From Pteria penguin (lineage: Eukaryota > Mollusca > Bivalvia > Pterioida > Pteriidae), in NCBI GenBank assembly GCA_035048485.1, contig CM068583.1, positions 22,233,341-22,297,340 on the forward strand: a DNA stretch of 64,000 bases. The letters run 5' to 3'. Both the position numbers and the translations under genes were made by a program. Numbering within the stretch: the stretch's first letter is position 1; each line of letters starts with the position of its first letter. This document shows positions 26,427 to 45,630 of the stretch, piece by piece. The notes under the pieces are model-generated. The model did no database searches and was not told the origin of the DNA. It saw only the letters and a program-made list of their open reading frames with translations.

Positions 26427-26442
26427 AGCCCTTAAAAGGGCT
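26427..26442 (-). promoter_or_regulatory. Histone-type 3' stem-loop, left TIR gene
   Basis: On the gene strand it reads AGCCCT-TTTA-AGGGCT followed by AACCA and then TTTAGAAAAGTA, 21 nt beyond the stop codon. It fits the metazoan histone mRNA stem-loop pattern (6-bp stem, UYUH loop, ACC(A/C) flank, purine-rich downstream element). The T run lies on the opposite strand, so it is not an intrinsic terminator for this gene. Confidence 0.6.
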
Positions 26443-26463
26443 GTTTTTTTTTCTTCCTGTCCC

Positions 26464-26772
26464 TTACCAGCATAAGGGGCAGTGGCGACGTGCCTTTCTC
26501 CTCTCACTTCGTCTAACTGTAGTATTGAGGAGTCTATCTACCAAGTGACCCACCCGGCAGGGTGGTGTACTTCTCCTACCGGATGGATGATCTTGTCTCT
26601 CTTCCTCGGGTTCTCTTTTGATGATTGTTGCGTTCAATGGCTGATCTGGCTCAATTTTGATATCATTGCCCGATTCTCGCTCTCTTAATATCACACGGCC
26701 TATGGCCGGCTCATGGATCGTGTAGATCAATCTCCTCTCCCAATCAATCGTGATTCTGATACTCGCTTCCAT
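26464..26772 (-). CDS. TIR-encoded protein, left copy (102 aa, unknown)
   Basis: The start is the Met of MEASIRITIDWER. The upstream open frame is rejected because it runs through the TATA-like and promoter repeats. The protein has an N-terminal beta-like part (RLIYTIHEPAIGRVIL), an acidic middle with KIEPDQP and IKREPEEE segments (the IK.EP shape resembles SUMO sites), a conserved CRVGHLVDRLLN and a basic tail ending CPLCW. It is about 80% identical to the right TIR copy. Family not recognised. Transcribed outward from the TIR promoter toward the element end, with a histone-like 3' stem-loop. Being present once per TIR, it is effectively a two-copy gene. Confidence 0.75.
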   Translation of the reverse strand: MEASIRITIDWERRLIYTIHEPAIGRVILRERESGNDIKIEPDQPLNATIIKREPEEERQDHPSGRRSTPPCRVGHLVDRLLNTTVRRSERRKARRHCPLCW

Positions 26773-26844
26773 GTTGTCGAAAAAATAAAATTTTTTCAGG
26801 TAAAGTACTAGAACATATTCTGAAGTATATATACTAATGTAAAC

Positions 26845-27088
26845 GCGGACGTGTAAGGAAACACCTTTTTGGTAACATAAACATTCTAATGTAAAACATA
26901 AACAATTTAAATTCAATCTACCATAAAACGCGGACGTGTAAGGAAACACCTTTTAGGTAACCTAAGTGTACTAAGACAAAGTCTTAAAATATTTTACTGT
27001 AATTGCGGACGTGTAAGGAAACACCTTTTTGGTAACCTAAACAAAGTCTTGAAATATTCTCATTTTTGCGGACGTGTAAGGAAACACC
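26845..27088. promoter_or_regulatory. Promoter repeat array of left TIR (4 copies)
   Basis: Four copies of GCGGACGTGTAAGGAAACAC(C) start at 26845, 26930, 27005 and 27068, each usually followed by TTTTTGGTAAC. The array lies between the divergent genes at 26772(-) and 27160(+). The outermost copy is next to TATATATA at about 26825 and the innermost next to TATAAATA at 27098. The right TIR has three copies. Probably a bidirectional promoter or enhancer, possibly also a replication element. Confidence 0.75.
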
Positions 27089-27159
27089 CTTTTTCAGTAT
27101 AAATAATAAGATTTTTTCTAGAGAAGCGCCACTTTTGATTCGAGATTTTTCGATTCAAG

Positions 27160-27582
27160 ATGAGTTCATCGAACAATATCGACTTTGAGTCCCTTTTGGA
27201 GATGTTATTGAAGGATGATGATATGCAGGAAAAGGCAGGAGGGGGGCAAACATCATCTATCCCCACTACAGTAAATCAACAGCCACAACATCAGGCACAA
27301 CTTTTACAGCAGCAGCAAGCCCAGCCGCATCAACAACAGACACAGGCACAGGTACAACAGCAGCAAAAGCAAAAGCAAAACACCAACATTGCGCTGCCGG
27401 CGCTGCCTAAGATTAGTTCAACGCAGCAGAACCGATTAACAACAACAAGGGCGCTGCAGCGTCGGATTCACGTGCTGGAATCCAACCAGAAAGTACTGAT
27501 TGAGGAGCTAGGAAAGACCAGACATTGCCTCAGAGAGTTAGCTAAGATAGTGTTAGCTAATAAAGAAGACGAAGAGATGTAA
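27160..27582 (+). CDS. Gln-rich coiled-coil protein (140 aa, unknown)
   Basis: It starts MSSSNNIDFESLLEML at the inner TIR boundary, 62 nt after TATAAATA. It has an acidic hydrophobic N-terminal helix (ESLLEMLLKDDD), a low-complexity Gln/Ala/His middle of about 60 residues made largely of CAG/CAA codons, and a C-terminal helix of about 45 residues (RALQRRIHVLESN..., heptad-like) suited to oligomerisation. No known domain. The acidic segment plus Gln-rich linker plus coil is reminiscent of transcriptional regulators, which is only inference. The 3' end carries a histone-type stem-loop 22 nt after the stop. Confidence 0.65.
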   Translation: MSSSNNIDFESLLEMLLKDDDMQEKAGGGQTSSIPTTVNQQPQHQAQLLQQQQAQPHQQQTQAQVQQQQKQKQNTNIALPALPKISSTQQNRLTTTRALQRRIHVLESNQKVLIEELGKTRHCLRELAKIVLANKEDEEM

Positions 27583-27604
27583 ATCAACAACATCAAAATA
27601 AAAA

Positions 27605-27620
27605 GGTCCTTTTAAGGACC
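27605..27620 (+). promoter_or_regulatory. Histone-type 3' stem-loop after the Gln-rich gene
   Basis: GGTCCT-TTTA-AGGACC followed by ACCT and, after a short spacer, ACGAAAAGTAG. A perfect 6-bp GG..CC stem with a UUUA loop preceded by an A-rich run: all features of the histone mRNA 3' processing signal. An overlapping AATAAA sits just upstream at about 27595. Confidence 0.65.
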
Positions 27621-27832
27621 ACCTAAAGCTTTACGAAAAGTAGTCATTTGTTGAATGCAACAATTATTTACTATGACTTTTCAGGAAATAAAAGAAGACG
27701 AGGAATAAAAATGTAAGTTTTTTTTTCTGTATAATGTATAACGGGTAAAAAAATATAAGTTTTTTTAGAAATAATGATACGAACTCGTTTAAATGTTTTC
27801 AACCTTATGGTTACTTTTCTAAAGATATGGTT

Positions 27833-27848
27833 GGCCCTTAAAAGGGCC
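27833..27848 (-). promoter_or_regulatory. Histone-type 3' stem-loop after the acidic gene
   Basis: On the minus strand GGCCCT-TTTA-AGGGCC, then AACCATATC and TTTAGAAAAGTAA, 23 nt downstream of the stop codon at 27872. Same architecture as the other four stem-loops in the element. Confidence 0.65.
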
Positions 27849-27871
27849 TTTTTATGATGTTAAAAATCTTC

Positions 27872-28153
27872 TCATTCTTCTCTCTCTGGAGGGTAACTTG
27901 GGTGGTCATAGTTCAGCAGCCTTTCGATCTCTCGGTCTTGTTGCCTGCTATACTCCATCATTTCTTCTTCTTCTTCCTCACTCATTTCCTGGTCGTTCTG
28001 CTCGTTGGTGTGATGGAGGATATTAGATAGTAATTGACTAAATATCCTCCACCAAAACAAACTCCTAGGGTTCCGTCCCGGATGACCAATATGGATACTG
28101 ATATCCTCGTCTCCCACTCTGAATGTGATTACACCTCTTATTTCAACATCCAT
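27872..28153 (-). CDS. Acidic small protein (93 aa, unknown)
   Basis: MDVEIRGVITFRVGDED start. The N-terminal half is beta-strand-like (GVITF, ISIHIGHPG), then WWRIFSQLLSNILHH, then an acidic run of Glu and a C-terminus ..YDHPSYPPEREE. Its opening is loosely like the TIR protein (both have E-x-R-x-x-I-T near the start), so a distant relationship is possible. Upstream on its strand are a TATATA-like box (about 28184) and a diverged copy of the GCGGACGT promoter motif (28203). Convergent with the Gln-rich gene, both ending in stem-loops. Confidence 0.6.
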   Translation of the reverse strand: MDVEIRGVITFRVGDEDISIHIGHPGRNPRSLFWWRIFSQLLSNILHHTNEQNDQEMSEEEEEEMMEYSRQQDREIERLLNYDHPSYPPEREE

Positions 28154-28202
28154 TTTGAAATGAAGTCTTAATACACGGTAAATGACTATATACTGTCAAA
28201 TT

Positions 28203-28223
28203 GCGGACGTCAAAGGCATCACC
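28203..28223 (-). promoter_or_regulatory. Diverged copy of the TIR promoter motif
   Basis: GCGGACGTCAAAGGCATCAC(C) matches the TIR repeat at about 16 of 21 positions and lies 50 nt upstream of the start codon at 28153, the same spacing as at the TIR genes. This links a non-TIR gene to the same putative regulon. Confidence 0.55.
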
Positions 28224-28425
28224 TTTTTTCATGTATTCAGAAGTGAAGGTCGAGCTATTTTCGTCACACAGTCACGAAAAGAACTCGAGTTTTTTTTAAA
28301 CTTAACTAAGAAAATACGACAAACGATAGAGATAAAGTAAGACATGTTTTATTCACATAATTACATGATCAATAAAATTGTCGTTTACACATAATCAATA
28401 AAAATATCGTTTACACATAATGTCA

Positions 28426-29226
28426 TTACATGATCAAAGCGATGTTTTTCTTGGTCATCTTTTTCTTTGGTAACGTCTCCTTTTTTTCTGCAATCTTTAC
28501 TTTCTTGGGAGCTTTCATGTTAGGAGTTTTCGGAGGAGGCATACTCGGAGTGGTTTTCGGACTCGGTGGTTCCGTGATTACAGGACTAGATGGTTGTCGA
28601 GCCTGTGGACACTCGTTAGCCCAATGTCCTTCTTCGTTACATCGAAAACAATTTCCCTTGATCGCTTGTTGTTGTTGTCTCTGAGGGCACTGTCTAAACC
28701 AATGTCCAGGTTGTTGACAATGGAAACACACATTATTAGGAGTGTTCGTTTCCGCTGTGTTGTATTTAAATTTCTTACGGCTAGGTTCGCCTGTATCATC
28801 GTCACCATCATTATCGTGGTACCTCTTGTTAGCCATTCGTTTCTTGATCTCACGTAACATATTTTGGGCATCAGCAACGTGTAAGTTCATTTCACCCATG
28901 CCTACATTGATTTGCACGGTTTCTAGCTTGGTTTCTTCCACGGTCTTTTGCAGTGTAGCTAGCGAACTCGTCAAGGTATCTTGGTTTTCTTTTAGGGTCT
29001 GCATCTCGACCTGATGTTTCTGTGCGACGAGGCTCTTCAATTGAGTCAGTAGAGCCTCTTCGTTCGAAGGTAACATGAGAGTATCATCGTTCTGCATCCC
29101 TTCGTCACGCATCAAATCTTTAATGAAATTGGTAGGAATCTCTGGTGGATGCATGCTCGTTTCGTCTATGAAGGCAGCAGAAGAACCAGCAGTAACAGTA
29201 GCAGTAGGAAACCTCGGTTGAGCCAT
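28426..29226 (-). CDS. CCHC zinc-knuckle protein, Gag-nucleocapsid-like (266 aa)
   Basis: The N-terminal third has predicted helices and a coiled coil (EEALLTQLKSLVAQKHQVE and a following Leu-rich stretch). Residues about 165-205 hold two CX2CX4HX4C knuckles (CFHCQQPGHWFRQC and CFRCNEEGHWANEC), the RNA/ssDNA-binding module of retroviral nucleocapsid and CNBP-type proteins. The C-terminal part is Pro/Thr-rich (PPSPKTTPS) then Lys-rich. A nucleic-acid-binding role, for example in packaging or replication, is likely. It is divergently transcribed from polB across a 250-bp promoter with repeated TGACCTTGAC motifs. Its 3' end uses AATAAA (about 28347-28353 on the minus strand), not a stem-loop. 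Confidence 0.75.
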   Translation of the reverse strand: MAQPRFPTATVTAGSSAAFIDETSMHPPEIPTNFIKDLMRDEGMQNDDTLMLPSNEEALLTQLKSLVAQKHQVEMQTLKENQDTLTSSLATLQKTVEETKLETVQINVGMGEMNLHVADAQNMLREIKKRMANKRYHDNDGDDDTGEPSRKKFKYNTAETNTPNNVCFHCQQPGHWFRQCPQRQQQQAIKGNCFRCNEEGHWANECPQARQPSSPVITEPPSPKTTPSMPPPKTPNMKAPKKVKIAEKKETLPKKKMTKKNIALIM

Positions 29227-29294
29227 GGTTGTTTTCTCTTGCGTGATGAATGCGAGAATGAAGTCTGTCGTTTACTCTCGTCTTTTTTAAACGA

Positions 29295-29465
29295 AATGAG
29301 TGACCTTCACCCTTAAAATCTTACCTTCACCCTTTAAATATGACCTTGACATTGATATGAATGTTCTAGACTTTTTTTTTCTAAAGTTGACCTTGTATTA
29401 GATCACATCAACCTTGACATAGAAATAAAATTTTACAAATGACCTTGACATTTCAAGGTCATAGG
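29295..29465. promoter_or_regulatory. Divergent promoter with nuclear-receptor half-sites
   Basis: About seven copies of TGACCTT(G/C)A(C)-type sequence, including a TCAAGGTCA on the + strand near 29453. TCAAGGTCA is the extended half-site of NR5A/ERR-type nuclear receptors (known). They lie between the zinc-knuckle gene (-) and polB (+). Confidence 0.55.
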
Positions 29466-29470
29466 AATCG

Positions 29471-29477
29471 TATAAAA
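29471..29477 (+). promoter_or_regulatory. TATA box of polB
   Basis: TATAAAA, 54 bp before the preferred polB start (29525). Its position makes the upstream ATG at 29483 unlikely to be transcribed. Confidence 0.6.
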
Positions 29478-29524
29478 AACCCGTGAAAACGCGATCGAGA
29501 TTAAAACGCGAATTATCAGTCACG

Positions 29525-32500
29525 ATGCCAGTCACGAGAGAATTATTGAGATCGAGAAAGTTTCGCACGCTTCTACGACGATGGATACAAAGACATGGTG
29601 GAATAGAAGGAGCTAGACGTCGCCTGCGGGAAATGAACAAGTCACCGCAAGATTTCTATACCATCAAGTTGAATCGATCACACAAGTCCAGAAAATTCAA
29701 GACCAGTGGTATACGATACAACGTACAGTTTAAAGCATTGACTCGAGAGATATCTCCAGGTCAGCTGCCGAGGTTTCTACCTAGGGTCATGAATTCGTTA
29801 GTAAACGATTTGAAAAGTAAGTGCCATGCCAAAGACAAAGACTACATCAGACTGATCATCAATCACCCTTCTCTGAAGTCCGAAGTATGGGTACCTTTCA
29901 CCATGAGTCAACACTTGTCTAGCGAAATGGTCTTGGCCGAAATACAGAAAGTACAACAGAGTAATGAAGACTTTAAGTTGGAAGACGGGCAAACAACGAT
30001 AGACGTCATCCACATCGAGATGCCTTATGGAACGGGAGGTAACAAGGCGAAACATCTGCATGCCGAAAAAGATGAATTTAGGAAAGACAAGAGATCCATC
30101 GTTCGGATCGTAAACGATTCCGACAACATGTGCCTAGCTAGAGCCATCGTGGTCGCCCGTCTACAAGCCCAGAAACCCACGGACCCCAAAGAGATGCAAG
30201 AATGGAAAAAGGCATGGTTTCGTATGAAAGTTTCCGATAGATTCCGTGATCAAGAAAGAGCAGCTAAATCACTATGTCAGGAAGCGGGCGTGTCCATAGA
30301 GCATGGGTGTGGACCTGTAGAATGGGGTAAATTCCAGACGGTCCTGAGTCCACAGTACAGATTGAAAATCCACCATCAGTTGACAGAAGCTAAGAAGATA
30401 AAACTACAGTTACTGTACAAGGGGGACGTGAGAAACAACATGAGACCCACCATGCTGAATATCCTGTATTCGAACCAACACTACGATACCATCACGTCTA
30501 TGACTGGTTTGATCGAACGTCAACATTACTGCGACTTTTGCGACGTCGGGTATACCCACAAGGAAGATCATCGCACGAAATGTCCCGTGAGGTGTAACTA
30601 CTGTTTGAATTCACCACCGTGCCCCCAGGACGATTCTAAGGTCACGTGTCAGAGCTGCAAAGGACATTTTCCCAACATGCAGTGTTATTGGAACCATCTG
30701 AAACCCAACAAAGTGGGAAAGAGCATATGCGACCTCATGACGAGATGCCGGGATTGTGGAAGTTGGATGAGTAAAGTACTGATGAAAATACACCGCTGCG
30801 GCGATAAAGAGCACGTCTGTTCCATCTGTAAGACCGTGGTGGAACAGGATCATCTCTGTTACGTACAACGTAAACCTAAACCTAAGAAGAAGAAAGGAGA
30901 AAAGAACTCGTACATCTTCTACGACTTCGAATGTAGCCAGGACACGGGAGTACACGTTCCAAACTTTTGCGTGGCACATCGAGCTTGCGATGCATGCATA
31001 CACTCACCCATCGAAGAAGAGTGCGAGACGTGCACCCCATTACCCGGAGGAAGAGAAGTCATCTTTCAAGGAGAGAAAACCTTAGAAAACTTCATGAGCT
31101 GGATATTTTCTAGCTGTGTCACGAACACCAACAGAGAAAAGAAATCATGCCACGACGGTGTGACGGCCATCGCTCACAACATGAGAGGATACGACGGTCA
31201 ATTTATTTTACATTTCCTGGTCAATCGTGCATGCATGAAACCCGACGTCTTGATGAGCGGAGCCAAGATCATGACGATGTCTGCCAACGGAATACGTTTC
31301 ATCGATTCCTACAACTTCATGAGTTCCTCGTTGAGTAAATTACCCAAGGCCTTCGGATTGACCGAATTGAAGAAAGGTTACTTCCCTCATCTTTTCAACA
31401 CCCCGGTCAACCAGCAGTACTCGGGTACCTATCCTCCGATGGAAACGTACTTGCCCGACTCCATGGAAACCGAGGCTCGACGTCAGTTCATCTCGTGGTA
31501 CGAAGATAAAGTGAAGAGCGGAGAACGGTTCAATTTTGCCACCGAGATGCGAGAGTATTGTCGATCCGATGTAGACATCTTGAGAAAATGCTGTGGAAAG
31601 TTCCGAGAAACCCTTCTGAACTTGGTCGACGTCGATCCCTTTGCGGAATGCGTCACGTTTGCCAGTGCCGCCAACTTGGCGTTTCGACGCAATTTCATGC
31701 CTAGAGATAGTTTGGCCATCATACCTACCGAAGGATACCATCCAAAGCGCAAATATTCCATCAAAGCCCTACGATGGTTGAAATGGATCGCTCACGACAC
31801 CAATCACGACATACGACACGCTCGCAACGGAGGGGAAGTCAGTATTGGACCATATACCGTGGACGGTTACGATACCAACACCCAAACCATTTACGAGTTC
31901 CACGGATGTTTCTGGCACGGTTGCCCCGAATGTTTCCCGAACATGATACATGAGGACCATCCGATACAACACGCACTCACGTTTGGGGAAATATATCAAG
32001 CCACGCAACAACGACAAGTCAATCTGAACGAAATGGGATTCAACGTGACCTGTATATGGGAACACGAGTACGAACAGAAGATCAAGGACGACCCGATGTT
32101 TGCCGAGTTCATTCTTTCGACGTACAAACAGATAGCCGATCCGCTGGAACCACGAGATGCACTGTTTGGAGGTCGCACCAATGCCACTCGATTGTATTGC
32201 GACGAAGGAGATATGCGTTACATCGACGTCTGTTCTTTATATCCATTCGTATTGAAATATGGTATCTTTCCCATCGGACATCCTACCATCATCACGGAGA
32301 AATTCCAGAACGTGAGGGAATACACGGGACTCGTCAAGTGTCGCATCTTCCCACCCCGTGGATTGTATCACCCCGTATTACCCTACCGCACGGATCATAA
32401 GTTATTGTTTCCTTTATGTCGGACGTGCGTGATGAGTAAAGAGAACATAAGATCCGACTACCGATGCGAACACACGGACGACGAGCGAGCACTCACGGGT

Positions 32501-33499: not shown

Positions 33500-33508
33500 A
33501 GGAACAAG

Positions 33509-33920
33509 ATGTGTGACGACACGACACAGCGTTGCTCAAACGTTTGTTTGAAGTGTGACCATGACGAAATAGAAGAACTGTTTGGACCACAATATTATCC
33601 TTGTCCTCACTGCAAGAGAGAAACGTTTGAGGAAGACTTGGGATGGTATTGTTACCAGTGTCATTTCGAGGTCTGTGAAGATTGTACTCATCCAGACAAA
33701 TGTCCGTTTTATCGATGTCGACATTGTCAAAAACAAGTCCGACGATGGAATCTGTTGTCTTAAATGTAAACAGCTGATTTGTAAGTCGTGTGTGACAACG
33801 ACATGTATCTATCTTCAATGTGAATTTTGCATGGAAGGTATCGAAGAAGACAAACTCGAAGATTCCATTTGTGCAGACTGTCGCGAAATAGTCGATAGAC
33901 ATTGGTCTAAGAAACATTGA
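33509..33920 (+). pseudogene. Cys-rich zinc-binding protein, frameshifted
   Basis: Frame 1 runs 33509-33763 (84 codons: LKCDHDE, CPHCKRE, CYQCHFEVCEDC, CPFYRCRHC) and then stops. A second frame, one base further on, continues the CxxC pattern from about 33755 to a stop at 33920 (CCLKCKQLICKSC, LQCEFC, CADCRE). The continuity of paired CxxC motifs indicates one RING/zinc-ribbon-like protein of roughly 135 residues split by a +1 frame change. I see no canonical slippery heptamer, so mutation or a sequence error is more likely than programmed shifting. It starts 9 nt after the polB stop. Confidence 0.6.
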
Positions 33921-33960
33921 AAAAACGAATCATTTTACCGTCGGATGCCGAACGAGCAAG

Positions 33961-34236
33961 ATGTGCGACGACATTCGTCCGATGATTAAACTGGCACTGT
34001 GTATGAACATGAACCTACGTAAATGTAATGGATGTTTTCGAGGAGAATCATGTGATTATGATTTCGAAAGGATCATGAACAATGTGTTACACGACGGGAA
34101 CATTATATCGGACATCATCATGTTAGTGTGTCGTTTTCATAAGACTTTTGTGCCTAGAGCCTACGTGAAAGAAGAACTCATAAATGTTTTACCTTTGTAT
34201 TATTCGAAACTTCGTTCTATCTATTGTTGTCAATAA
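33961..34236 (+). CDS. Small Cys-containing protein (91 aa, unknown)
   Basis: It starts MCDDIRPMIKLAL, sharing the MCDD opening with the preceding Cys-rich gene. Contains CNGCFRGESC and further single cysteines, then a helical C-terminal half. The stop is followed at once by AATAAA. Probably a small accessory protein; no family recognised. Confidence 0.6.
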   Translation: MCDDIRPMIKLALCMNMNLRKCNGCFRGESCDYDFERIMNNVLHDGNIISDIIMLVCRFHKTFVPRAYVKEELINVLPLYYSKLRSIYCCQ

Positions 34237-34395
34237 ATTTGTATAGAACACAATAATGTAAAACATTTGTTTGTACAAATAAAATTTGTGTAAAACATTT
34301 GTTGTAAAATAAATTTGTGTAAAACATTTGTTGTAAAATAAATTTGTGTAAAACATTTGTTGTAAATAAATTTGTGTAAAACACAATAATGTCTT
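34231..34395 (+). repeat. Tandem polyadenylation-signal repeat
   Basis: Four to five copies of a unit of about 28-30 bp, TGTAAAACATTTGTTGTAAAATAAATT, each carrying AATAAA or AAATAAATT. It lies in the gap between the polB-side genes and the ATPase gene and so may act as a strong transcript 3' end. Confidence 0.7.
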
Positions 34396-34434
34396 ATTAT
34401 TCATGGTCTTAAGCTATCGACGTCATTTGACGTC

Positions 34435-38317: not shown

Positions 38318-38610
38318 AGGAGAGTCCGATACCACCTATCAACAACAACAACAACAACAACAACAATAACATCGTGCGTTCATGGAAGTGGTGTGGCGAA
38401 GCGGTACCTAGAAGCGAGATCGTATTTTTCACCCAAGCGTTCGTGGCGATGACGGTCATCTTGGCGGGCATCATTTGTCTGGCTTTGGGACAAGACAACA
38501 GAGAATTTTGGATGGTGATGCTGAGCGGAAGTTTGGGGTATATAATGCCCAGTCCCAAGATGAAACAATCAAATTGGGTGCGATCGCGACTGGAGAAGAC
38601 GTTAACATGA
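38281..38610 (+). CDS. Two-helix membrane protein (109 aa)
   Basis: Start chosen at MDSSSEPHRID, inside the integrase end. The upstream in-frame Met lies deeper in the integrase. It has an Asn run encoded by (AAC)n, then two hydrophobic helices (about 46-70 and 77-95) and a conserved-looking GYIMPSPK at the end of the second. Small GY(L/I)(L/M)P(N/S)P proteins next to penton genes are common in Polintons (recalled pattern). The stop TGA overlaps the next ATG (ATGA), so translation of the penton gene may be coupled or rely on leaky scanning. Confidence 0.7.
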   Translation: MDSSSEPHRIDVEESPIPPINNNNNNNNNNIVRSWKWCGEAVPRSEIVFFTQAFVAMTVILAGIICLALGQDNREFWMVMLSGSLGYIMPSPKMKQSNWVRSRLEKTLT

Positions 38611-39575
38611 GTTTCTACATGACATTACCCAGCGATGGATCTTTGGAAACCTTTCCGAACAACACCCTGTCTTCTTTCCGTACACACTTACCTCAGATGA
38701 TGGACTTAGACGACGGGGAATGGGAAGTAGGATTGAGCGAGATCGTCTATCCCACCACCGTGGAAAACGTCAAAGAGGGAGGCAACTACATGGAGATCAT
38801 CGTACCCAGTTACTTTCGAGGAAGATCCGTGACACCGAGTCCTTCCGAGCGTTTCAAGATTAAAAAGCTCACCAACAGCTTACCGTTCAGTGCCGCCGAC
38901 CGTCCCGACATACGTGTTCCCATCGCCCACCCCAGTTTCAGCATCCCCATCGTGGGCGTGACCTACCGAGTCGAAATCATGACGGGATTTTACAGTTCCA
39001 TCGAAGGAGTATTGGCAGAATTGAATCACGTACTTAAACACGGATTCGGAAGCATCTTGAAAGGGTTGGCAGACGAAAACGAGACCGATTTCAGAGAGCT
39101 GAAGTTCGAGTATTTGAAGACCTTCAATCGAGTACAGTTGTTGGTCAAGGGACCCGATCACGGTACCAAATACATCTATCCCGTCCGATTATGTCCGGCT
39201 CTGGCGCACATGTTGGGATTCACGATCGATTCGGATCCCTCGTGGATGACCAAGACGACCTACGGCGTAGTGACTCCGGATCTCTACATAGGAATGAGTG
39301 CCCTGTACCTGTATAACAACATCACGCGATCACAGATCGTCGGATCCAAGAACCTACAGCTCTTGCGCATCGTACCTTTCAAACAACAAAGGGTCGACAC
39401 CGATGCAAACTCGCACGGACATTGGGAACCGCGCCTGGTGGAATACATACCTCTGGCCAAAACCCACTTCGATACCTTGGCCATCCATATATACGACGGA
39501 TTGGGGGAACGAGTCTCATTCTTCAACGGCAAAGTCATCGTGAAGCTACATTTTCGTCAGAAGCGCTACATTTAA
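38607..39575 (+). CDS. Minor capsid (penton-like) protein (322 aa)
   Basis: Start at MSFYMTLPSDGS (38607), chosen because the family begins with the 'FY(V/M)TLPS' strand and because it makes an ATGA overlap with the membrane gene. An upstream in-frame Met lies inside that gene. The N-terminal PNNTLSSFRTHLPQ...GEWEVGLSEIVYP is the signature of the Polinton minor jelly-roll capsid protein that forms pentameric vertices. The rest is beta-rich, ending VIVKLHFRQKRYI. Intact and of normal length. Its last 31 codons are duplicated downstream at 39885. Confidence 0.82.
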   Translation: MSFYMTLPSDGSLETFPNNTLSSFRTHLPQMMDLDDGEWEVGLSEIVYPTTVENVKEGGNYMEIIVPSYFRGRSVTPSPSERFKIKKLTNSLPFSAADRPDIRVPIAHPSFSIPIVGVTYRVEIMTGFYSSIEGVLAELNHVLKHGFGSILKGLADENETDFRELKFEYLKTFNRVQLLVKGPDHGTKYIYPVRLCPALAHMLGFTIDSDPSWMTKTTYGVVTPDLYIGMSALYLYNNITRSQIVGSKNLQLLRIVPFKQQRVDTDANSHGHWEPRLVEYIPLAKTHFDTLAIHIYDGLGERVSFFNGKVIVKLHFRQKRYI

Positions 39576-39626
39576 ACCATGATCGTTCATCGAGGGGTGG
39601 TCCGTCAGAGAGGTCGGGGCTTGGGT
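39481..39626 (+). repeat. 146-bp direct repeat, copy 1
   Basis: Contains the last 31 codons of the penton gene and the first 16 codons (MIVHRGVVRQRGRGLG) of the next gene. It matches 39885-40030 with only a few substitutions. Confidence 0.92.
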
Positions 39627-39878
39627 CGTGGTGTTCGAAATCAACGAGGAGGAGTATTTTCGTTACCGGTTCTTGCATATAAAGCAATGAAAAAAAGAGA
39701 AGAACAAAGTAAAAACGCTCCAAAACCCTCAATGAAAGATTTGTTTAAAGTATGGAAAGCTCATGCTTCTCTTATAAGAGAAGCGCAAACGAAAAGAGGA
39801 CCTAACGGAATGTATCTGGATCCCTTAAAAATAGTTATGAATATGCATGGTAATCCCTTTACCATCTTTCCATCCTAA
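39579..39878 (+). CDS. Duplication-flanked small basic protein (99 aa)
   Basis: The first 16 residues, MIVHRGVVRQRGRGLG, come from the duplicated segment. The remainder (RGVRNQRGGVFSLPV, then a Lys-rich helix and FKVWKAHASLI...) is unrelated to the neighbouring core gene and more AT-rich in codon use than it. The gene lies between the two 146-bp repeats, as if inserted or created by segment duplication plus capture. It may be expressed using the start region of the core gene. No family recognised. Confidence 0.6.
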   Translation: MIVHRGVVRQRGRGLGRGVRNQRGGVFSLPVLAYKAMKKREEQSKNAPKPSMKDLFKVWKAHASLIREAQTKRGPNGMYLDPLKIVMNMHGNPFTIFPS

Positions 39879-39884
39879 GAGGAA

Positions 39885-39980
39885 CCATCCATATATACGA
39901 CGGATTGGGGGAACGAGTATCATTCTTCAATGGCAAAGTCATCGTGAAACTACATTTTCGTCAGAAGCGCTACATTTAAA
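39885..39980 (+). pseudogene. Fragment of penton gene 3' end
   Basis: A second copy of the last 31 codons of the minor capsid gene (IHIYDGLGERVSFFNG...), including the stop, with no start of its own. Part of the 146-bp direct repeat copy 2. Confidence 0.8.
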
Positions 39981-40030
39981 CCATGATCGTTCATCGAGGG
40001 GTGGCCCGTCAGAGAGGTCGGGGCTTGGGT
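39885..40030 (+). repeat. 146-bp direct repeat, copy 2
   Basis: Matches 39481-39626 at an offset of 404 bp and ends inside the first codons of the core-protein gene. The high similarity points to a fairly recent duplication. Confidence 0.92.
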
Positions 40031-40705
40031 CCCCTGATAGGACTGGGAGCCAAAATGATGATGGGACCCGGAATGTCGATAGCTCAGTCGGTCTTACCAG
40101 CGATTTTACCCGCACTCATGGGACAAGGAGGTCGAGGACGACGAAGAAGAGGGCAGACGGGATCGGGATTTAAGGATATAGCCTTGTCCTTTCTCAAAAA
40201 AGGGGGAAAGAAAGTATTGAAAGGAGCACTCAACGCGGGACTAGACATCGTGAATCGGAAAAGAAACTGGAAAGATGCTTTTTTACATCACGGCAGAGAA
40301 ACGGCTAGCGACATTCTGTCGTCGGCACCTTCCGACGTATTCACCAGCGTGGTGATGCCGGAACCCAAGAGAGCCAGACCGACCGAGGAAGGCGTCAGAC
40401 GAGCTCTCGCAGAAGTCGTCAAGCGTCATAATCCCGTCAAACGAACTCCTATCACGGCAGGAGTCAAACGAACTCCTACCACGGCAGGAGTCAAACGTGC
40501 AAATCCGGTCAAGAAAGCAGGTGCCGTGGGACCCCGGGCTCCCATAAAAAGAAGAGCTGTCGGAAAGAAACGTCAGTCTGGAAAAGGACGTGTCAGAAGA
40601 AAGTTGGGTGTTATACTACCCGCCGGACCAATCCAGAGAAAACTGAAATCTGCCAAGAAAAGACTGAGATCTATCAAGAGAAGATCGATAGACATATTCG
40701 ATTAA
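39983..40705 (+). CDS. Basic virion-core-like protein (240 aa)
   Basis: Arg/Gly N-terminus (MIVHRGVARQRGRGLG), a Met/Gly/Ala-rich hydrophobic stretch (about 17-45), then a basic domain and a Lys/Arg-rich C-terminus with a repeated VKRTP(I/T)TAG unit. Three segments, LIGL|G, MMGP|G and LMGQ|G, fit the adenovirus protease type II consensus (M/I/L)XGX|G, as expected of a core precursor such as adenovirus pVII/pX/pVI. DNA condensation in the particle is the likely role. It sits between penton and major capsid genes. Confidence 0.68.
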   Translation: MIVHRGVARQRGRGLGPLIGLGAKMMMGPGMSIAQSVLPAILPALMGQGGRGRRRRGQTGSGFKDIALSFLKKGGKKVLKGALNAGLDIVNRKRNWKDAFLHHGRETASDILSSAPSDVFTSVVMPEPKRARPTEEGVRRALAEVVKRHNPVKRTPITAGVKRTPTTAGVKRANPVKKAGAVGPRAPIKRRAVGKKRQSGKGRVRRKLGVILPAGPIQRKLKSAKKRLRSIKRRSIDIFD

Positions 40706-40706
40706 G

Positions 40707-42038
40707 ATGATGCACAGAGAATCATGCGAGTGTTCGACGGAGGGCTTACAGTTGAATCGAGTTCCACAAACGATGACGGTGTTGGAGAAAGCCCAATGGG
40801 AAGAATTTTATCCCGTGAGTTCCATCGACAATCGAAATCCGACGGCACCGATCGAATTCGATATCAAGGGACACGGGGAGGACTTTTTAGATCTTTCTCA
40901 GACTTTCGTCTACATGAAATTCAAGGTCACGAAAGCGGACGGAACGGATTTAGGCGCCGACACGCAGGTCACTCCCGTCAACAACATCATGCACAGCATG
41001 TTTTCGCAGATCGACATGTCCATGAACGGCAAGACCATCACCCCGAGCACCGACACGTATCCGTATCGAGCTTATTTGGAGACTTTACTCTCGTACACTC
41101 CCGAGACCCTCAGGAAACAGATCAGTAGTACCGACTTGTGGTTCACGGATCAAGCTGGACGCATGAATGCCGTCAACCCGTACGAGGACGATAAGACTGC
41201 CGCCGGCTACAACATCGGTCTGATCCAACGTCACAAGAAGATCTAAGAAAGTAAATGGTTGGAATTGTACGATCGCATACATCTGGACATGTTTCAACAA
41301 GGGAATTTCATCGTCAACGGCGTGGACGTCCGCTTGAGATTCAACAGGGCTCGTACGTCGTTTTGTCTGATGGGAAACGAGGACGGTAACATTCACATCG
41401 AACAGATGATGTTATTCGTGCGTAAAGTGAGACTCATGCCAAATGCGCTGTTAGGAGTCAATCAGATGTTGAACACCACGACGGCCAAATACCCCATAAG
41501 ACGCGTGGAAGTGAAATCCTTTACCATTCCGCAGGGCACTCGTTCGAAGATCACGGACAACGTGTTTTCCGGACAGTTACCCAAACGGGTATTCTTTTGC
41601 ATGACGAAAAATGCAGGCTACAACGGAGCTTTGAATCGGAACCCGTTCGATTTCGGAAACTTCGATCTGGAGAAAATAGAAATCAGTCTGAACGGAGACG
41701 TCCAACACACCAAACCCTACGAACCGAACTTTGACGACAATCTATACCTGCGTTCTTACATGTCCTTGTACCAATCCCTGGGAAGGATCGGCGACGATTG
41801 GGCTCCAGACATATCCTACCAGGAATACAAGAACGGTTTCGCCATTTGGGGATTCGACTTCACCACGGACCAGAACGGACACGTAGCCGATAAATTTCAC
41901 ATGGTAAAAACGGGTAACATGCGCATCGAACTTCAGTTCGGCACAGCGTTACCGACCGTCATCAATTGCATCGTGTATGCAGAATTCGACAACGTCATAC
42001 AAATCAATAAACAGAGGGAAATCGATGTCGACTATTAA
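40707..42038 (+). pseudogene. Major capsid protein (double jelly-roll), one in-frame stop
   Basis: The N-terminal SCECSTEGLQL and EFDIKGHGEDFLDLSQTFVYMKF are signature sequences of the Polinton hexon-like major capsid protein. The frame is interrupted by a single TAA at 41244-41246, after RHKKI, and continues in the same frame (ESKWLELYDRIHLDMFQQ...) to 42038. About 443 codons in total, otherwise undamaged. It is either a nonsense mutation that abolishes full-length capsid, a sequencing error, or stop-codon readthrough. The context gives no reason to prefer readthrough. The last 14 nt overlap the protease start. Confidence 0.85.
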
Positions 42039-42627
42039 AGCCCTGGATACTCATCAACTGTACGATATTCTGTCTCGCGATCCATACGTGAGTCCTCATT
42101 TTGGAGGCGTGTATCCTCGGGACGCCTTACCGATTGGAAGCGACGGACGATCTTTCGTCATCAACACGGACGAGGCCGATAAACCGGGAGAACATTGGGT
42201 GTGTGTTCACTTCGGAGAGGACGGGATAGCCGAATATTTCGATTCCTACGGATTACCACCATGGGCGTATGGCGATATCGTACGTTTCATGCGATCCAAA
42301 AGTCGAAGCCTAGTCTACAATACCGTACCTTATCAAAGTTGGGATACCCCCGTGTGCGGACATTACTGTATCTATTACCTACACCACAGAAGTCGAAAGG
42401 TACCCAGATCGGATATGATGCGTTGGCTGATGTCGTATCACCTACCGATCCCGTCCAAGACGACATGGAAGAAAGAAGACAACGATCGTTTCATTTACCA
42501 ATGGTATCGAGAGAACGTGATCCCGAGAAAACCCAGACCTTTAACGATGAAGAAACAGACTTGCTTGTGTCGGAAAGCGCCGAATCTCGTACATCCCGCC
42601 GCTGCTGTGACGTCTGCCTTGACTTGA
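42025..42627 (+). CDS. Adenain-like cysteine protease (200 aa)
   Basis: Start at MSTIKALDTHQL (42025), overlapping the capsid stop by 14 nt; a more distant in-frame Met lies within the capsid gene. The catalytic set has the order of adenovirus protease/Ulp1 (C5/C48): His57 in GEHWVCVHF, Asp73 in EYFDSYG, Gln104 in VPYQS and Cys111 in VCGHYCIYYL. It would process core and capsid precursors during maturation. Length and spacing are close to adenain. Intact. A Cys-containing basic tail (KKQTCLCRKAP) follows the catalytic domain. Confidence 0.92.
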   Translation: MSTIKALDTHQLYDILSRDPYVSPHFGGVYPRDALPIGSDGRSFVINTDEADKPGEHWVCVHFGEDGIAEYFDSYGLPPWAYGDIVRFMRSKSRSLVYNTVPYQSWDTPVCGHYCIYYLHHRSRKVPRSDMMRWLMSYHLPIPSKTTWKKEDNDRFIYQWYRENVIPRKPRPLTMKKQTCLCRKAPNLVHPAAAVTSALT

Positions 42628-42698
42628 CTTCTTTCATACTCATGATTTTAGCCATTCAATTGTTCATTGTAGGTTTAGCTTTGCTTAACTATGTATGA
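42465..42698 (+). CDS. Overlapping small tail-anchored membrane protein (77 aa)
   Basis: Read in the frame next to the protease, overlapping its last 163 nt and extending 71 nt past it. MEERRQRSFHLP start, an acidic TFNDEETDLL segment, RRCCDVC and one C-terminal helix (LTSFILMILAIQLFIVGLAL) ending just before the stop. The non-random hydrophobic end outside the protease gene argues it is real, but the first Met is uncertain. Confidence 0.5.
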   Translation: MEERRQRSFHLPMVSRERDPEKTQTFNDEETDLLVSESAESRTSRRCCDVCLDLTSFILMILAIQLFIVGLALLNYV

Positions 42699-42952
42699 TA
42701 TTATGTATGATATTATGTCAAAATGTATAAATCAAAATGTATATATCAAATTATGTCAAAATGTGTTAATCAAACAAAAATATTTGTCGAGTATCCGAAA
42801 TGACCAAACTTGGACGATGGAGACATCGCTCCGAGCCGTAATGGCAGAGTTTAAACAAAGTAGTGAGACAGATATTTGATTGTAAATATGCATTGTAAGT
42901 GAAGAACAAAGGGACGGTCCTAATCCTTGTTCTTTACGTTGTGTTAGCGGGA

Positions 42953-42958
42953 CAATAA
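42953..42958 (+). terminator. Polyadenylation signal of the capsid-protease cluster
   Basis: AATAAA in GGGACAATAAATTG, about 330 nt downstream of the protease stop, before the next promoter. The intervening 42700-42950 is AT-rich with short TATGATAT repeats and no gene. Confidence 0.45.
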
Positions 42959-42989
42959 ATTGATTCAAAACATATTCTTCTTTGTTTGT

Positions 42990-43207
42990 CTCAAGTACAA
43001 GGTTAATTGAATAGAACAAGTTCAAGGTCGTATAGACAAAATGTTATTTGAATACAAGTTCAAGGTCAATTGATTTAAAAACAACTTCAAGGTCGTGTGG
43101 AAAAGTCCAGAACCTTCAGTACAAGTTCAAGGTTATTTTGAAAAAAACCCAAGTTCAAGGTCAAGGTCATCAAGTACAAGTTCAAGGTCGAAACCAGATA
43201 TATAAAA
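42990..43207 (+). promoter_or_regulatory. Promoter with six TTCAAGGT half-sites and TATA box
   Basis: AAGTTCAAGGTC or close variants occur at about 43020, 43058, 43085, 43125, 43152 and 43189, with an additional overlapping CAAGGTCA. TATAAAA at 43201 lies 47 bp before the ATG. All sites are on the same strand, as expected for monomer-binding nuclear receptors. Confidence 0.6.
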
Positions 43208-43247
43208 TAGGGAAAGAAAGCAAGACTCGTCATTATCATCAATCATC

Positions 43248-43892
43248 ATGAATACTTCGTTCGACAGACCAAACCCGGAGCACGTTCACCTTGCCAAACA
43301 GAGATTCGCCAACATGTTACATTCCTTGAATGAGGAACTGAAAGGACAGGGGCTTCGAGACCTCAAGATCAATTTACAGTTCGTCTATGATATGTCGCCA
43401 GCAGAAGTATACACCCAGTGTGCCAGTGATCTCGTTCAAAGGATGTTGTGGAATCTATTCATACGCTTCGAACCTGAAAAGCGTAACGTGAACTTGAAAG
43501 CACTGCTACAATGTCTCAATACCAAAAACACTCGCAAGGCATTCGATCTGGTATACGATGCTTGGGAAGAAATGATCGTGACTTTGAAAGATTTGACGAT
43601 CATATCCATGCACAGAGTCTATCGATACGAAGAAGAAAAAAAGGATGTCACTATGAGCAAACCGCAAAATCAAGAAGAAAAGGATGTCACTATGAGCAAA
43701 CCGCAAAATCAAGAACTATCCGATTCGGAAGACCACGACGACCATACGCCGTTCCGAGTGGAATACGTTGCCGTTCATCCCGATTGCATCGGGGAAGAAG
43801 ATCACCAAAATCAACTCATGTTAGAAATCTGTCCGAAGTGTCGGAAATATAACGAAGCCTTACATAAAGACGAAATAATGATGCTCTCTTAA
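43248..43892 (+). CDS. Unknown element protein with duplicated 13-aa unit (214 aa)
   Basis: MNTSFDRPNPEHVHLAKQRF start behind a TATA box. The first 130 residues are helical (FANMLHSLNEELK, DLVQRMLWNLFIRF). At about 128-153 a 39-bp tandem duplication gives two copies of KDVTMSKPQNQEE. The C-terminal part has CPKCRKYNEAL. No family recognised. It has its own nuclear-receptor-like promoter, which sets it apart from the capsid cluster, and is followed by a second small gene. Confidence 0.65.
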   Translation: MNTSFDRPNPEHVHLAKQRFANMLHSLNEELKGQGLRDLKINLQFVYDMSPAEVYTQCASDLVQRMLWNLFIRFEPEKRNVNLKALLQCLNTKNTRKAFDLVYDAWEEMIVTLKDLTIISMHRVYRYEEEKKDVTMSKPQNQEEKDVTMSKPQNQELSDSEDHDDHTPFRVEYVAVHPDCIGEEDHQNQLMLEICPKCRKYNEALHKDEIMMLS

Positions 43893-43930
43893 AAGACAGA
43901 GTCGTAATAGAAACTCGATCAGTTACCGTC

Positions 43931-44206
43931 ATGTTGTCGAGACTACTACAGTGGCAGATTTGGTTCTCTTTAACCATCCTTAGACGTTCGCAATGGAGAG
44001 AAATGTTATCCGACATAAAAAACTTGAGGGACTATCACGAAGTAGTGATCGCCATGTTTAAAGACGGAAGAGTGTCCGAAACAAAACTATACGTGTTAGA
44101 ACTCTTTACTAAAGATCTGTGTCGAAAATTCGGAAGCGATGTATTCAAAGACTCCTTCGATAGAGTGAAAGATAGACTCATGAGATTAAGACCAGTGACT
44201 GTGTAA
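43931..44206 (+). CDS. Small helical protein (91 aa, unknown)
   Basis: MLSRLLQWQIWFSLTILRRSQW start with an amphipathic or membrane-leaning N-terminus, then a charged helical body. It lies 38 nt after the preceding gene and is probably co-transcribed with it. Several AATAAA signals follow at about 44265-44300. Confidence 0.5.
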   Translation: MLSRLLQWQIWFSLTILRRSQWREMLSDIKNLRDYHEVVIAMFKDGRVSETKLYVLELFTKDLCRKFGSDVFKDSFDRVKDRLMRLRPVTV

Positions 44207-44394
44207 ACATTTTGTATGACGAAATATGTAAAATAATAATGATAAACATTCTGCCATTGCTATGTAAATAAAATCATAATAAACTCATAATAAAATAAGA
44301 CTTACCGTGTTTTTGTTATTGCATCAACCCTCGAGTTACTTTTCAATTTTGTAGTATTGCATCGACCATTTGGCTACTTTTCTTAAGATATGGT

Positions 44395-44410
44395 GGCCCT
44401 AAAAAGGGCC
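44395..44410 (-). promoter_or_regulatory. Histone-type 3' stem-loop after the Pro-rich gene
   Basis: On the minus strand GGCCCT-TTTT-AGGGCC, then ACCATATC and TTAAGAAAAGTAG, 22 nt past the stop codon. The loop is UUUU, where the other four have UUUA. Confidence 0.62.
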
Positions 44411-44432
44411 GTTTTTAGTTCTTTTAAAGAAC

Positions 44433-44978
44433 TCAGTGACCCCCGCATTTGCGGGAGCCACACGCCGGGCACGACAGTGCCCGTCTTCTAGCAGCACAAG
44501 AAAGTGCTGATAGAGGACGGGGGGAAAACTGCAATAGTTCCGGCTGGAACGGAGGTTCGGGAGGCTGTGATAGAATTTCAGCATCCCAATCTTCTCTCGG
44601 TACAGGAGCTGGATGTGCTGCCGCTGCCGGTGGTGGTGGCCTTACCGGTGGTGGTAGCCTTACCGGTGGTGGTGGCCTTGCCGGTGCTGACGTCAGTACT
44701 GGTACTTGTGGTGGTGGAGGGGGTGGCGGGTAGTTCGGAGGCCCGTGATGTTGATTGGGCCTCCAGCTAAATGGTCTTAAGGTCACCACCTGTCTAACTG
44801 TACTTGTCTCCTTTTTCTGTTCTTCCTCTCTTTTCTTTTCGATTAGATTGCTAATTTCATTAGCAATTTCATCCAATTTATCCGCCATCTCTATCAACTC
44901 TATTGCTTTTACTCTGTGTTTCTCAGAAATTTCTCTTAGGCGTATTGAATACTGCTCCATACTGTATAAAGAACTCAT
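44433..44978 (-). CDS. Coiled-coil, Pro-rich protein with C-terminal Cys motif (181 aa)
   Basis: It starts MSSLYSMEQYSIRLREI at the inner end of the right TIR. Residues 5-58 are a charged coiled coil (EMADKLDEIANEISNLIEKK). Residues about 75-130 are Pro-rich (PPPPPPPQVP, RPPPPVRLPPPVRPPPP). The C-terminus is CPACGSRKCGGH, a possible zinc-binding pair. No family recognised. It occupies the mirror position of the Gln-rich gene at the left end and shares its promoter type and stem-loop, but the sequences are unrelated after the first three residues. Confidence 0.65.
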   Translation of the reverse strand: MSSLYSMEQYSIRLREISEKHRVKAIELIEMADKLDEIANEISNLIEKKREEEQKKETSTVRQVVTLRPFSWRPNQHHGPPNYPPPPPPPQVPVLTSAPARPPPPVRLPPPVRPPPPAAAAHPAPVPREDWDAEILSQPPEPPFQPELLQFSPRPLSALSCAARRRALSCPACGSRKCGGH

Positions 44979-45065
44979 CTTTAATACGAAAATCTTGATT
45001 CGAAAAATCTCGATTCAAAACTGGCGCTTCTCTAGAAAAAATCTTATTATTTATACTGAAAAAAG

Positions 45066-45224
45066 GGTGTTTCCTTACACGTCCGCAAAAATGAGAATAT
45101 TTCAAGACTTTGTTTAGGTTACCAAAAAGGTGTTTCCTTACACGTCCGCAATTACAGTAAAATATTTCAAGACTTTGTCTTAGTACACTTAGGTTACCAA
45201 AAAGGTGTTTCCTTACACGTCCGC
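45066..45224. promoter_or_regulatory. Promoter repeat array of right TIR (3 copies)
   Basis: Inverse copies of GCGGACGTGTAAGGAAACAC(C) at 45066, 45129 and 45204, between the divergent genes 44978(-) and 45298(+), each adjacent to a GTTACCAAAAA or similar segment. TATA-like boxes flank the array (TTTATA near 45048, TATATATA near 45236). Confidence 0.75.
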
Positions 45225-45297
45225 GTTTACATTAGTATATATACTTCAGAATATGTTCTAGTACTTTACCTGAAAAAATTTTATTTTTTTCGACGAC

Positions 45298-45594
45298 ATG
45301 GAAGCGAGTATCAGAATCACCATAGACTGGGAGAGGAAATTGATCTACACTATACATGAGCCAGCCATAGGACGGGTCATCTTAAGAGATAGAGAGTCGG
45401 GACAAGATGTCAAGATAGAGCCAGATCAACCGATGAATGCTACGGTCATCAAAAGAGAAGAGACCCAAGATTCACCCGGTAGGAGAAGAACACCACCATG
45501 CCGGGTGGGTCACTTGGTAGATAGACTACTAAATAACCAACTAAGGCGCAGTGAGAGGAGAAAGGCACGTCGCCACTGCCCCTTATGCTGGTAA
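45298..45594 (+). CDS. TIR-encoded protein, right copy (98 aa, unknown)
   Basis: Homologue of the gene at 26464-26772, with the same MEASIRITIDWER start, CRVGHLVDRLLN core and CPLCW end, but four residues shorter in the acidic middle. The first codons and last about 45 nt are identical to the left copy, while the region between has many mostly third-position differences, so both copies appear to have been under protein-level constraint. Ends in a histone-like stem-loop 20 nt after the stop. Confidence 0.75.
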   Translation: MEASIRITIDWERKLIYTIHEPAIGRVILRDRESGQDVKIEPDQPMNATVIKREETQDSPGRRRTPPCRVGHLVDRLLNNQLRRSERRKARRHCPLCW

Positions 45595-45614
45595 GGGGTA
45601 AGAAGAAAAAAAAC

Positions 45615-45630
45615 AGCCCTTTTAAGGGCT
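45615..45630 (+). promoter_or_regulatory. Histone-type 3' stem-loop, right TIR gene
   Basis: AGCCCT-TTTA-AGGGCT preceded by an A-rich run and followed by AACCATTTC and TTTAGAAAAGTAA. Identical to the left TIR copy. Confidence 0.6.

What the first reader, a model, noticed from the sequence alone, without database searches (positions are those of the whole stretch)
26427..45630. Five Polinton end genes finish in histone-mRNA-type 3' stem-loops
At 26427(-), 27605(+), 27833(-), 44395(-) and 45615(+), each gene strand has an A-rich run, a 6-bp stem (G/A)GYCCT..AGGRC(C/T), a TTTA or TTTT loop, ACC(A/T) and then a purine-rich (A/C)GAAAAGTA. All lie 20-23 nt after a stop codon. Known: the metazoan replication-dependent histone stem-loop has this stem, a UYUH loop, an ACC(C/A)-type flank and a purine-rich downstream element that pairs with U7 snRNA. 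Inference: these element genes borrow the host SLBP/U7 pathway to make non-polyadenylated, S-phase-linked mRNAs, while the other element genes use AATAAA. I know of no description of this in Polintons.
Basis: partly seen in the sequence, partly recalled or inferred. Interest (0 to 1): 0.9.

Follow-up and report, generated by a model that had tools for sequence, protein, structure and literature searches.

The report
Polinton genes with histone-type mRNA ends
Four small genes at the ends of a virus-like transposon in a mollusc genome finish in the same hairpin-plus-tail signal that the animal's own histone genes use, which suggests that the element uses the cell's histone-mRNA machinery instead of ordinary poly(A) tails.

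Summary
All five hairpins are where stated, 20-23 nt after stop codons of small ORFs; the two in the inverted repeats are one site copied, so four are independent. RF00032 scores two over its cut-off, one just below, the TIR pair 28.4 bits. In the host genome, H4, H2B, H2A, H3 and H1 of a histone repeat end in the same stem-loop and downstream element, (C/A)GAAAAGTA. A model from 11 host non-Polinton sites finds exactly these five in 64 kb (50.6-60.8 bits, E<=8.2e-10). Genome-wide, stem-loop plus downstream element occurs 431 times (reversed pattern: 0). Of 100 places listed, 31 lie in the histone array and 69 form 23 clusters, 8 with all five sites. Of these 69, 24 were fetched: 24 follow homologues of the four genes, and an outer pair not used to find them pairs in all 24. 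One of 12 distant loci, a Polinton contig, carries the stem-loop too. Nothing here measures RNA; U7 was not found. A 2025 paper counts six 'histone 3'UTR stem-loop' in polinton-like viruses without discussing them. Most likely these genes make non-polyadenylated mRNAs through host SLBP/U7.

The parts
26243..45814 (.). Polinton/Maverick element, 19.6 kb, bounded by inverted repeats and a 6-bp target-site duplication AACCTT (26237-26242 and 45815-45820)
   Evidence: flanks printed, boundaries read by eye; inverted repeats; PolB, rve+chromo integrase and A32-type ATPase in Pfam
26427..26442 (-). histone-type stem-loop of the left TIR gene (AGCCCT-TTTA-AGGGCT)
26406..26418 (-). histone downstream element CTTTAGAAAAGTA of the left TIR gene; the string ATTTCTTTAGAAAAGTA is shared with host H3
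26464..26772 (-). left TIR gene, 102 aa, stop 21 nt before the stem
   Evidence: dN 0.073, dS 0.68 against the right copy
26845..27087 (+). four copies of GCGGACGTGTAAGGAAACAC between the divergent TIR gene and gene A, presumed shared promoter region
27160..27582 (+). gene A, 140 aa, Q-rich, stop 22 nt before the stem
27605..27620 (+). stem-loop of gene A (GGTCCT-TTTA-AGGACC)
27629..27643 (+). downstream element of gene A, CTTTACGAAAAGTAG
27872..28153 (-). gene B, 93 aa, acidic, stop 23 nt before the stem
27833..27848 (-). stem-loop of gene B (GGCCCT-TTTA-AGGGCC)
27812..27824 (-). downstream element of gene B, CTTTAGAAAAGTA
44433..44978 (-). gene C, 181 aa, proline-rich, C-terminal CPAC motif, stop 22 nt before the stem
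44395..44410 (-). stem-loop of gene C (GGCCCT-TTTT-AGGGCC)
44375..44387 (-). downstream element of gene C, CTTAAGAAAAGTA
45298..45594 (+). right TIR gene, 98 aa, stop 20 nt before the stem
45615..45630 (+). stem-loop of the right TIR gene, same sequence as the left
45639..45651 (+). downstream element of the right TIR gene, CTTTAGAAAAGTA
45067..45224 (-). three copies of the promoter-region repeat in the right TIR

Best explanation
The terminal genes of this Polinton (the TIR gene, A, B and C) end in working host-type replication-dependent histone 3' ends. The transcript folds a 6-bp stem with a 4-nt loop that host SLBP binds; the GAAAAGTA element, which begins 12-14 nt after the stem (13 in all five host histone genes), is the site that host U7 snRNP pairs with; the histone cleavage complex cuts a few nucleotides after the stem, giving a capped mRNA without poly(A). 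As for histone mRNAs, this should tie accumulation of these mRNAs to S phase. Shown: the sequence elements, their identity with host histone ends, their fixed place after genes, and their retention with paired changes. Inferred from the known histone pathway: SLBP and U7 binding, cleavage, absence of poly(A), S-phase timing. The genes in the middle of the element carry no such signal, so the element would have two classes of mRNA.
For: In one host histone repeat 5 of 5 genes (H4, H2B, H2A, H1, H3) carry the same stem-loop and (C/A)GAAAAGTA element. A model built from 11 host non-Polinton sites finds exactly 5 sites in the window, 50.6-60.8 bits, E<=8.2e-10, and no other at E<=1. Sites follow stops by 20-23 nt on the coding strand. 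With two further copies (C8, C13) the stem is intact at TIR 5 of 5 ends examined, window included, A 3 of 3, C 2 of 2, B 2 of 3. In the 7 comparisons between copies with intact stems the 47-nt core is better kept than the next 89 nt, clearly for gene C (44/47 against 50/89) and B-C8 (46/47 against 68/89), modestly for TIR (42-43/47 against 74-75/89). Two of 6 stem pairs have two-sided changes; 0 of 500 shuffles reach the covariation score. Genome-wide 431 exact matches against 0 for the reversed pattern; 24 of 24 fetched non-histone loci lie after TIR/A/B/C homologues, and the outer pair, not part of the pattern, forms in 30 of 30 loci. The TIR gene is under purifying selection. A distant Polinton contig, L005, has RF00032 at 35.8 bits after a zinc-finger ORF.
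Against: No RNA evidence. No U7 gene: the only RF00066 hit (27.8 bits, cut-off 34) pairs with the element no better than shuffles. AATAAA lies 14, 104 and 121 nt after the gene A stop and 257 nt after the right TIR stop, so poly(A) ends are possible there. In the copies C8 and C13 the stem of gene B is lost once (C13), and GAAAAGTA has a one-base change in 3 of 8 sites (C8 right TIR, C8 gene A, C13 gene C). The covariation count has limits: the alignment was fitted to the model, the rows are related, most cells of the broken B stem fall on gaps and are set aside, and 41 of 500 shuffles reach the number of pairs with two-sided changes. 11 of the 12 loci found with PolB in public collections had no RF00032 hit over the cut-off; two come from one 316-kb viral contig and the other nine are contigs of 3-13 kb. 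The TIR sites score under the RF00032 cut-off.
Confidence: 0.86

Rival explanations
1. Histone-type ends serve only as stability or translation elements, or as a backup: the genes are mainly cleaved and polyadenylated at downstream AATAAA sites.
For: AATAAA within 400 nt after gene A and the right TIR gene.
Against: 3 of 5 sites have no AATAAA or ATTAAA in the 400 nt after the stem. The downstream element, which would be absent from a mature histone-type mRNA, is also retained (exact GAAAAGTA in 5 of 8 orthologous sites, one-base changes in 3), which points to 3'-end processing. Host H4 also has AATAAA close to its stem.
Confidence: 0.09
2. The hairpins are DNA-level signals (TIR replication, packaging or a palindromic protein site) and look like histone ends by chance or descent.
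For: Two sites are inside the TIRs; four of the five stems match the pattern on both strands with at most 2 mismatches.
Against: The asymmetric features (loop TTTA or TTTT, downstream element) follow the gene strand at all five sites; host histone genes share stem and downstream element.
Confidence: 0.03
3. Passive capture: a host histone 3' end was picked up once and duplicated inside the element, without present function.
For: Three of the sites resemble each other beyond the core (62-84% over 58 nt), so they may share origin by duplication; one stem is broken in copy C13.
Against: Retention after four ORFs without detectable similarity to each other, paired changes between orthologous sites, and presence in many copies; a diverged remnant with a TIR-type protein about 30% identical still has two sites.
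Confidence: 0.02

Closest known systems
Metazoan replication-dependent histone mRNA 3' end (Rfam RF00032, SLBP/U7 pathway)
   Same: Stem, loop, A-rich 5' flank, ACC-type flank and purine-rich downstream element, with the letters of the host's own histone genes.
   Different: Attached to four non-histone genes of a mobile element; stop-to-stem 20-23 nt here, 26-38 nt in the five host histone genes; TIR and B sites have AACC after the stem.
Polinton/Maverick self-synthesizing transposons
   Same: PolB, rve integrase with chromodomain, A32 ATPase, inverted repeats, 6-bp duplication.
   Different: No description of histone-type mRNA ends on their terminal genes turned up in the searches made.
Histone 3'UTR stem-loops counted in polinton-like viruses (PMC12220804)
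   Same: 6 such stem-loops listed among non-coding RNAs of a PLV/virophage collection (section 16 read).
   Different: A number in a list; in that section no gene, position, downstream element, host comparison or mechanism. The supplementary tables could not be opened, so I cannot say whether any is of this kind.
Host 116-aa and 113-aa gene family (C2 arrays, C3)
   Same: Non-histone protein genes with the same stem-loop and downstream element.
   Different: Host genes, not part of the element; the 116-aa protein has relatives in 8 named molluscs; the kinship of the 113-aa proteins was judged by eye.

Membership tests
Replication-dependent histone 3' end (RF00032) | covariance-model match over the curated cut-off | tested here: inconclusive
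   2 of 5 sites over 34 bits, one 33.3, TIR pair 28.4; one TIR site each in copies C8 and C13 reaches 41.6
Replication-dependent histone 3' end (RF00032) | same stem-loop as the host's own histone genes | tested here: met
   5 of 5 genes of one host histone repeat; host-only model
Replication-dependent histone 3' end (RF00032) | histone downstream element at the spacing of the host's | tested here: met
   (C/A)GAAAAGTA in all five window sites and in host H1, H2A, H2B, H3, H4; begins 12-14 nt after the stem here, 13 nt in the host (read; model alignment)
Replication-dependent histone 3' end (RF00032) | downstream element pairs with host U7 snRNA | tested here: inconclusive
   no convincing U7 gene found; a pattern search for it did not complete
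Replication-dependent histone 3' end (RF00032) | short 3'UTR on the coding strand | tested here: met
   20-23 nt stop to stem
Replication-dependent histone 3' end (RF00032) | SLBP binding, cleavage after the stem, no poly(A), S-phase expression | not testable with these tools
   needs RNA and protein assays
Polinton/Maverick | family B PolB, rve integrase, packaging ATPase | tested here: met
   DNA_pol_B_2 2.2e-52, rve 3.8e-13 with Chromo, Pox_A32 4.3e-5
Polinton/Maverick | terminal inverted repeats and 6-bp target-site duplication | tested here: met
   (duplication read by eye)
Polinton/Maverick | major and minor capsid genes and protease | tested here: inconclusive
   the ORFs presumed to be these gave no Pfam hit

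The most novel reading that the evidence does not exclude
Animal Polintons have a general, old strategy: their terminal, fast-evolving regulatory genes are expressed as non-polyadenylated, S-phase-gated mRNAs through the host's histone SLBP/U7 machinery, and the downstream element changes with the U7 of each host. The histone pathway would then not be private to histones but a separate class of animal mRNA ends that both a mobile element and a multicopy mollusc gene family use.
Probability: 0.5. Interest if true: 0.93.

Novelty: new variant of a known kind. Interest (0 to 1): 0.88.

Why it matters
Histone mRNAs are taught as the animal mRNAs that lack poly(A) and end in this stem-loop (recalled). 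A virus-like transposon that uses the same end on its own genes would show that the pathway can be borrowed, would give a simple way to couple a selfish element to host DNA replication, and predicts that poly(A)-selected RNA-seq under-reports these genes. It is directly testable: total-RNA 3'-end data from dividing mollusc cells should show it.

Tried and rejected
U7 gene: the single RF00066 hit (L022, 27.8 bits) was examined; its 5' end pairs with Polinton and host downstream elements no better than shuffles, so I reject it as evidence. Pairing with the human U7 5' end, recalled from memory, was mixed (at chance for the window sites and L005, better than chance for host H3) and is not used.

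IMG/VR: single-protein scans with PolB and ATPase found no relative; the PolB alignment found two loci of one 316-kb viral contig. A stem-loop pattern gave one hit, L013, which lies inside a coding gene of a phage-like contig and is taken as chance. A stem-loop plus downstream-element pattern gave none.

Homologues of the TIR protein in the protein database: none. Pfam on A, B, C and the TIR protein: nothing significant.

The RF00032 search of the host genome scored 75 matches, 73 over the cut-off, but did not list the window's own five, so its list is incomplete; of its 14 control genomes one had a match, below the cut-off. The pattern search lists 100 of 431 places; my cluster and gene counts rest on those 100 (31 in the histone array, 69 elsewhere) and on the 30 loci laid out.

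In one search some of the 24 are weaker: L053 matches gene C at 33% and no in-frame stop before the stem was found; L061 matches only the last 22 residues of gene A region; L060 has its stop 39 nt before the stem. Other stop-to-stem distances there are 18-25 nt. In one search three further host-model matches with E 0.19-0.67 (L011 twice, L028 once) were ignored. L033, L034, L037 and L038 had no match at E<=1.

Dropped before a count: the 31 listed places in the C1 histone array were left out of the cluster table. The two TIR rows of alignment A2 are near-copies.
Full report
WHAT WAS CHECKED. The pattern RGYCCTTTTWAGGRCY occurs without mismatch at exactly the five stated places. RF00032 scores 35.1, 34.4, 33.3, 28.4 and 28.4 bits there and matches nothing else in the window at E<=5. 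The stem is 6 bp in all, the loop TTTA (four) or TTTT (gene C), and each lies 20-23 nt after the stop of an ORF of 93-181 aa on the same strand. The 211-nt outer inverted repeat is 100% identical, so the two TIR sites are one site copied.

THE ELEMENT. PolB, integrase with chromodomain and A32-type ATPase, inverted repeats and a 6-bp duplication AACCTT at 26237-26242 and 45815-45820 (read) make this a Polinton of 19.6 kb. The ORFs presumed to be capsid and protease gave no Pfam hit. The four stem-loop genes sit at its ends. The TIR gene is read outwards; gene A (left) and gene C (right) are read inwards from a TIR region with four or three copies of GCGGACGTGTAAGGAAACAC; gene B converges on gene A. 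The middle genes have no such signal at E<=1. The two TIR proteins differ at dN 0.073 and dS 0.68, so this is a selected protein, although the ends around it are homogenised.

THE HOST. The genome search placed the window in an unnamed 838-Mb genome. A tandem 116-aa gene in it has relatives whose 8 rows with an organism name, among the 120 listed of 161, are all molluscs (Pinctada, Mytilus, Tegillarca, Mactra, Ruditapes, Mercenaria, Patella, Dreissena), and the best named PolB relatives are oyster proteins. So the host is a mollusc, probably a bivalve; the species was not determined.

THE DECISIVE COMPARISON. The host histone repeat (L023) holds H4, H2B, H2A, H1 and H3. All five end in the stem-loop followed by TTTTTCGAAAAGTAG, CTTTCGAAAAGTAG or, in H3, ATTTCTTTAGAAAAGTAG. 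The Polinton sites read CTTTAGAAAAGTA, CTTTACGAAAAGTAG or CTTAAGAAAAGTA. A model from 11 host non-Polinton sites finds exactly five sites in the window, at 50.6-60.8 bits, E 8.2e-10 or better, and no other at E<=1. A paper on another bivalve, Lucina pectinata, says that all its histone mRNAs have the stem-loop near the stop and some a purine-rich element (PMC6210712, one passage seen).

CONSERVATION. Two further copies on C8 and C13 (76-96% nucleotide identity in the long aligned pieces) keep the stem at the TIR ends examined (5 of 5 with the window's), gene A 3 of 3, gene C 2 of 2 (C13 with a G-U pair; no gene C match in the C8 pieces fetched) and gene B 2 of 3; in C13 the stem of B is broken while the downstream element remains. 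GAAAAGTA itself is exact in 5 of these 8 orthologous sites and has a one-base change in 3 (C8 right TIR, C8 gene A, C13 gene C). Between orthologous TIR sites the outer pair changes from A-U to G-C on both sides. Over 11 distinct rows 62 of 62 counted cells pair, 2 of 6 pairs have two-sided changes, and 0 of 500 shuffles reach the covariation score, though 41 of 500 reach the number of two-sided pairs; the rows are related, the alignment was fitted to the model and cells of the broken B stem that fall on gaps are not counted. With the window and L005 alone the figures were 7 and 47 of 500. The core is better kept than the next 89 nt in the 7 comparisons with intact stems between copies; the exception is the broken B of C13 (38/47 against 78/89), and the window's two TIRs are identical in both parts.

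GENOME-WIDE. Stem-loop plus downstream element occurs 431 times, the reversed pattern 0 times. Of the 100 places listed, 31 are in the C1 histone array, and 6 of 6 of these fetched follow H2B. The other 69 form 23 clusters, 8 of which have five sites in the window's order or its mirror image over 18-23 kb. Of these 69, 24 were fetched: 24 lie after a match to the TIR gene (9), A (5), B (5) or C (5), one of them (L053) only 33% identical and without an in-frame stop before the stem. The outer stem pair, which the pattern does not contain, is a standard pair in 30 of 30 loci, H2B included. A diverged remnant (L030) encodes a TIR-type protein about 30% identical (0 of 2000 shuffles score as high) near two more sites (63.7 and 50.8 bits); the stem-loop of that ORF itself seems cut short by a breakpoint.

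BEYOND THIS HOST. Of 12 loci found with PolB in public collections, one, L005, carries RF00032 over the cut-off, at 35.8 bits. It is an 8.9-kb contig filed under a bacterial bin, with a PolB relative, ORFs that by eye resemble capsid, protease and chromo-integrase, and an 89-aa C2H2 zinc-finger ORF before the stem. The host-only model gives it 25.6 bits, E 0.0015. Its downstream stretch is AAAAAAGAGA, unlike the mollusc's. The other 11 have no hit. This is one case only.

MECHANISM. Shown: the signals and their retention. Inferred from established knowledge of histone mRNAs: SLBP binds the stem-loop, U7 snRNP pairs downstream, cleavage leaves no poly(A), and SLBP restricts it to S phase. Since a downstream element is lost from the mature mRNA, its retention points to 3'-end processing rather than only stability. 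I think that the element times its terminal, presumably regulatory, genes to the host's replication phase.

NOVELTY. Searches for Polinton with histone stem-loop or histone mRNA, for Polinton with stem-loop, transcript and capsid, for Maverick with histone, stem-loop and transposon, for histone stem-loop with transposable element and virus, for RF00032 with virus, and for SLBP and U7 snRNP with viral genome or transposon (listings seen) gave no description of this. [quoted passage not shown] The library holds open-licence papers only.

LIMITS. No RNA data, no U7, no named host; the genome tool answered only at times, so SLBP and the remaining 331 places were not examined.

Noticed in passing
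L024 (G000:C2:70597500-70602500), L031, L025: A tandem array of about 1.4-kb units encodes a 116-aa non-histone protein with the same histone stem-loop and downstream element; similar 113-aa ORFs on C3. Named relatives of the 116-aa protein are molluscs: apparently a multicopy mollusc gene with replication-dependent histone-type ends.
   Followed up: partly
window 26241-26451 and 45606-45816 against 26464-26772 and 45298-45594: The outer 211 nt of the TIRs are 100% identical while the TIR gene just inside differs at dS 0.68; identity stops at the A-run before the stem-loop.
   Followed up: partly
window 44336-44346 and L032: Downstream of gene C a further TGAAAAGTA occurs in the window and two in copy C13, as if the downstream element were multiplied.
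   Followed up: no
window 40707-41246 and 41259-42038: The presumed capsid gene (judged by size and position, no Pfam hit) is in two ORFs in this copy, so the copy may not be intact.
   Followed up: no
L026 (G000:C9:18317000-18326500): An SR-rich, lysine-rich 238-aa H1-like protein, perhaps a sperm linker histone (by eye), with the highest RF00032 score listed (43 bits).
   Followed up: no
window 39481-39627 and 39885-40031: A 147-nt direct repeat, 97% identical, 404 nt apart inside the element.
   Followed up: no
L039-L062 and the list: Several copies with all five sites in this genome, some with genes A, B and C over 95% identical in protein to the window's: probably a recently active family.
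   Followed up: partly
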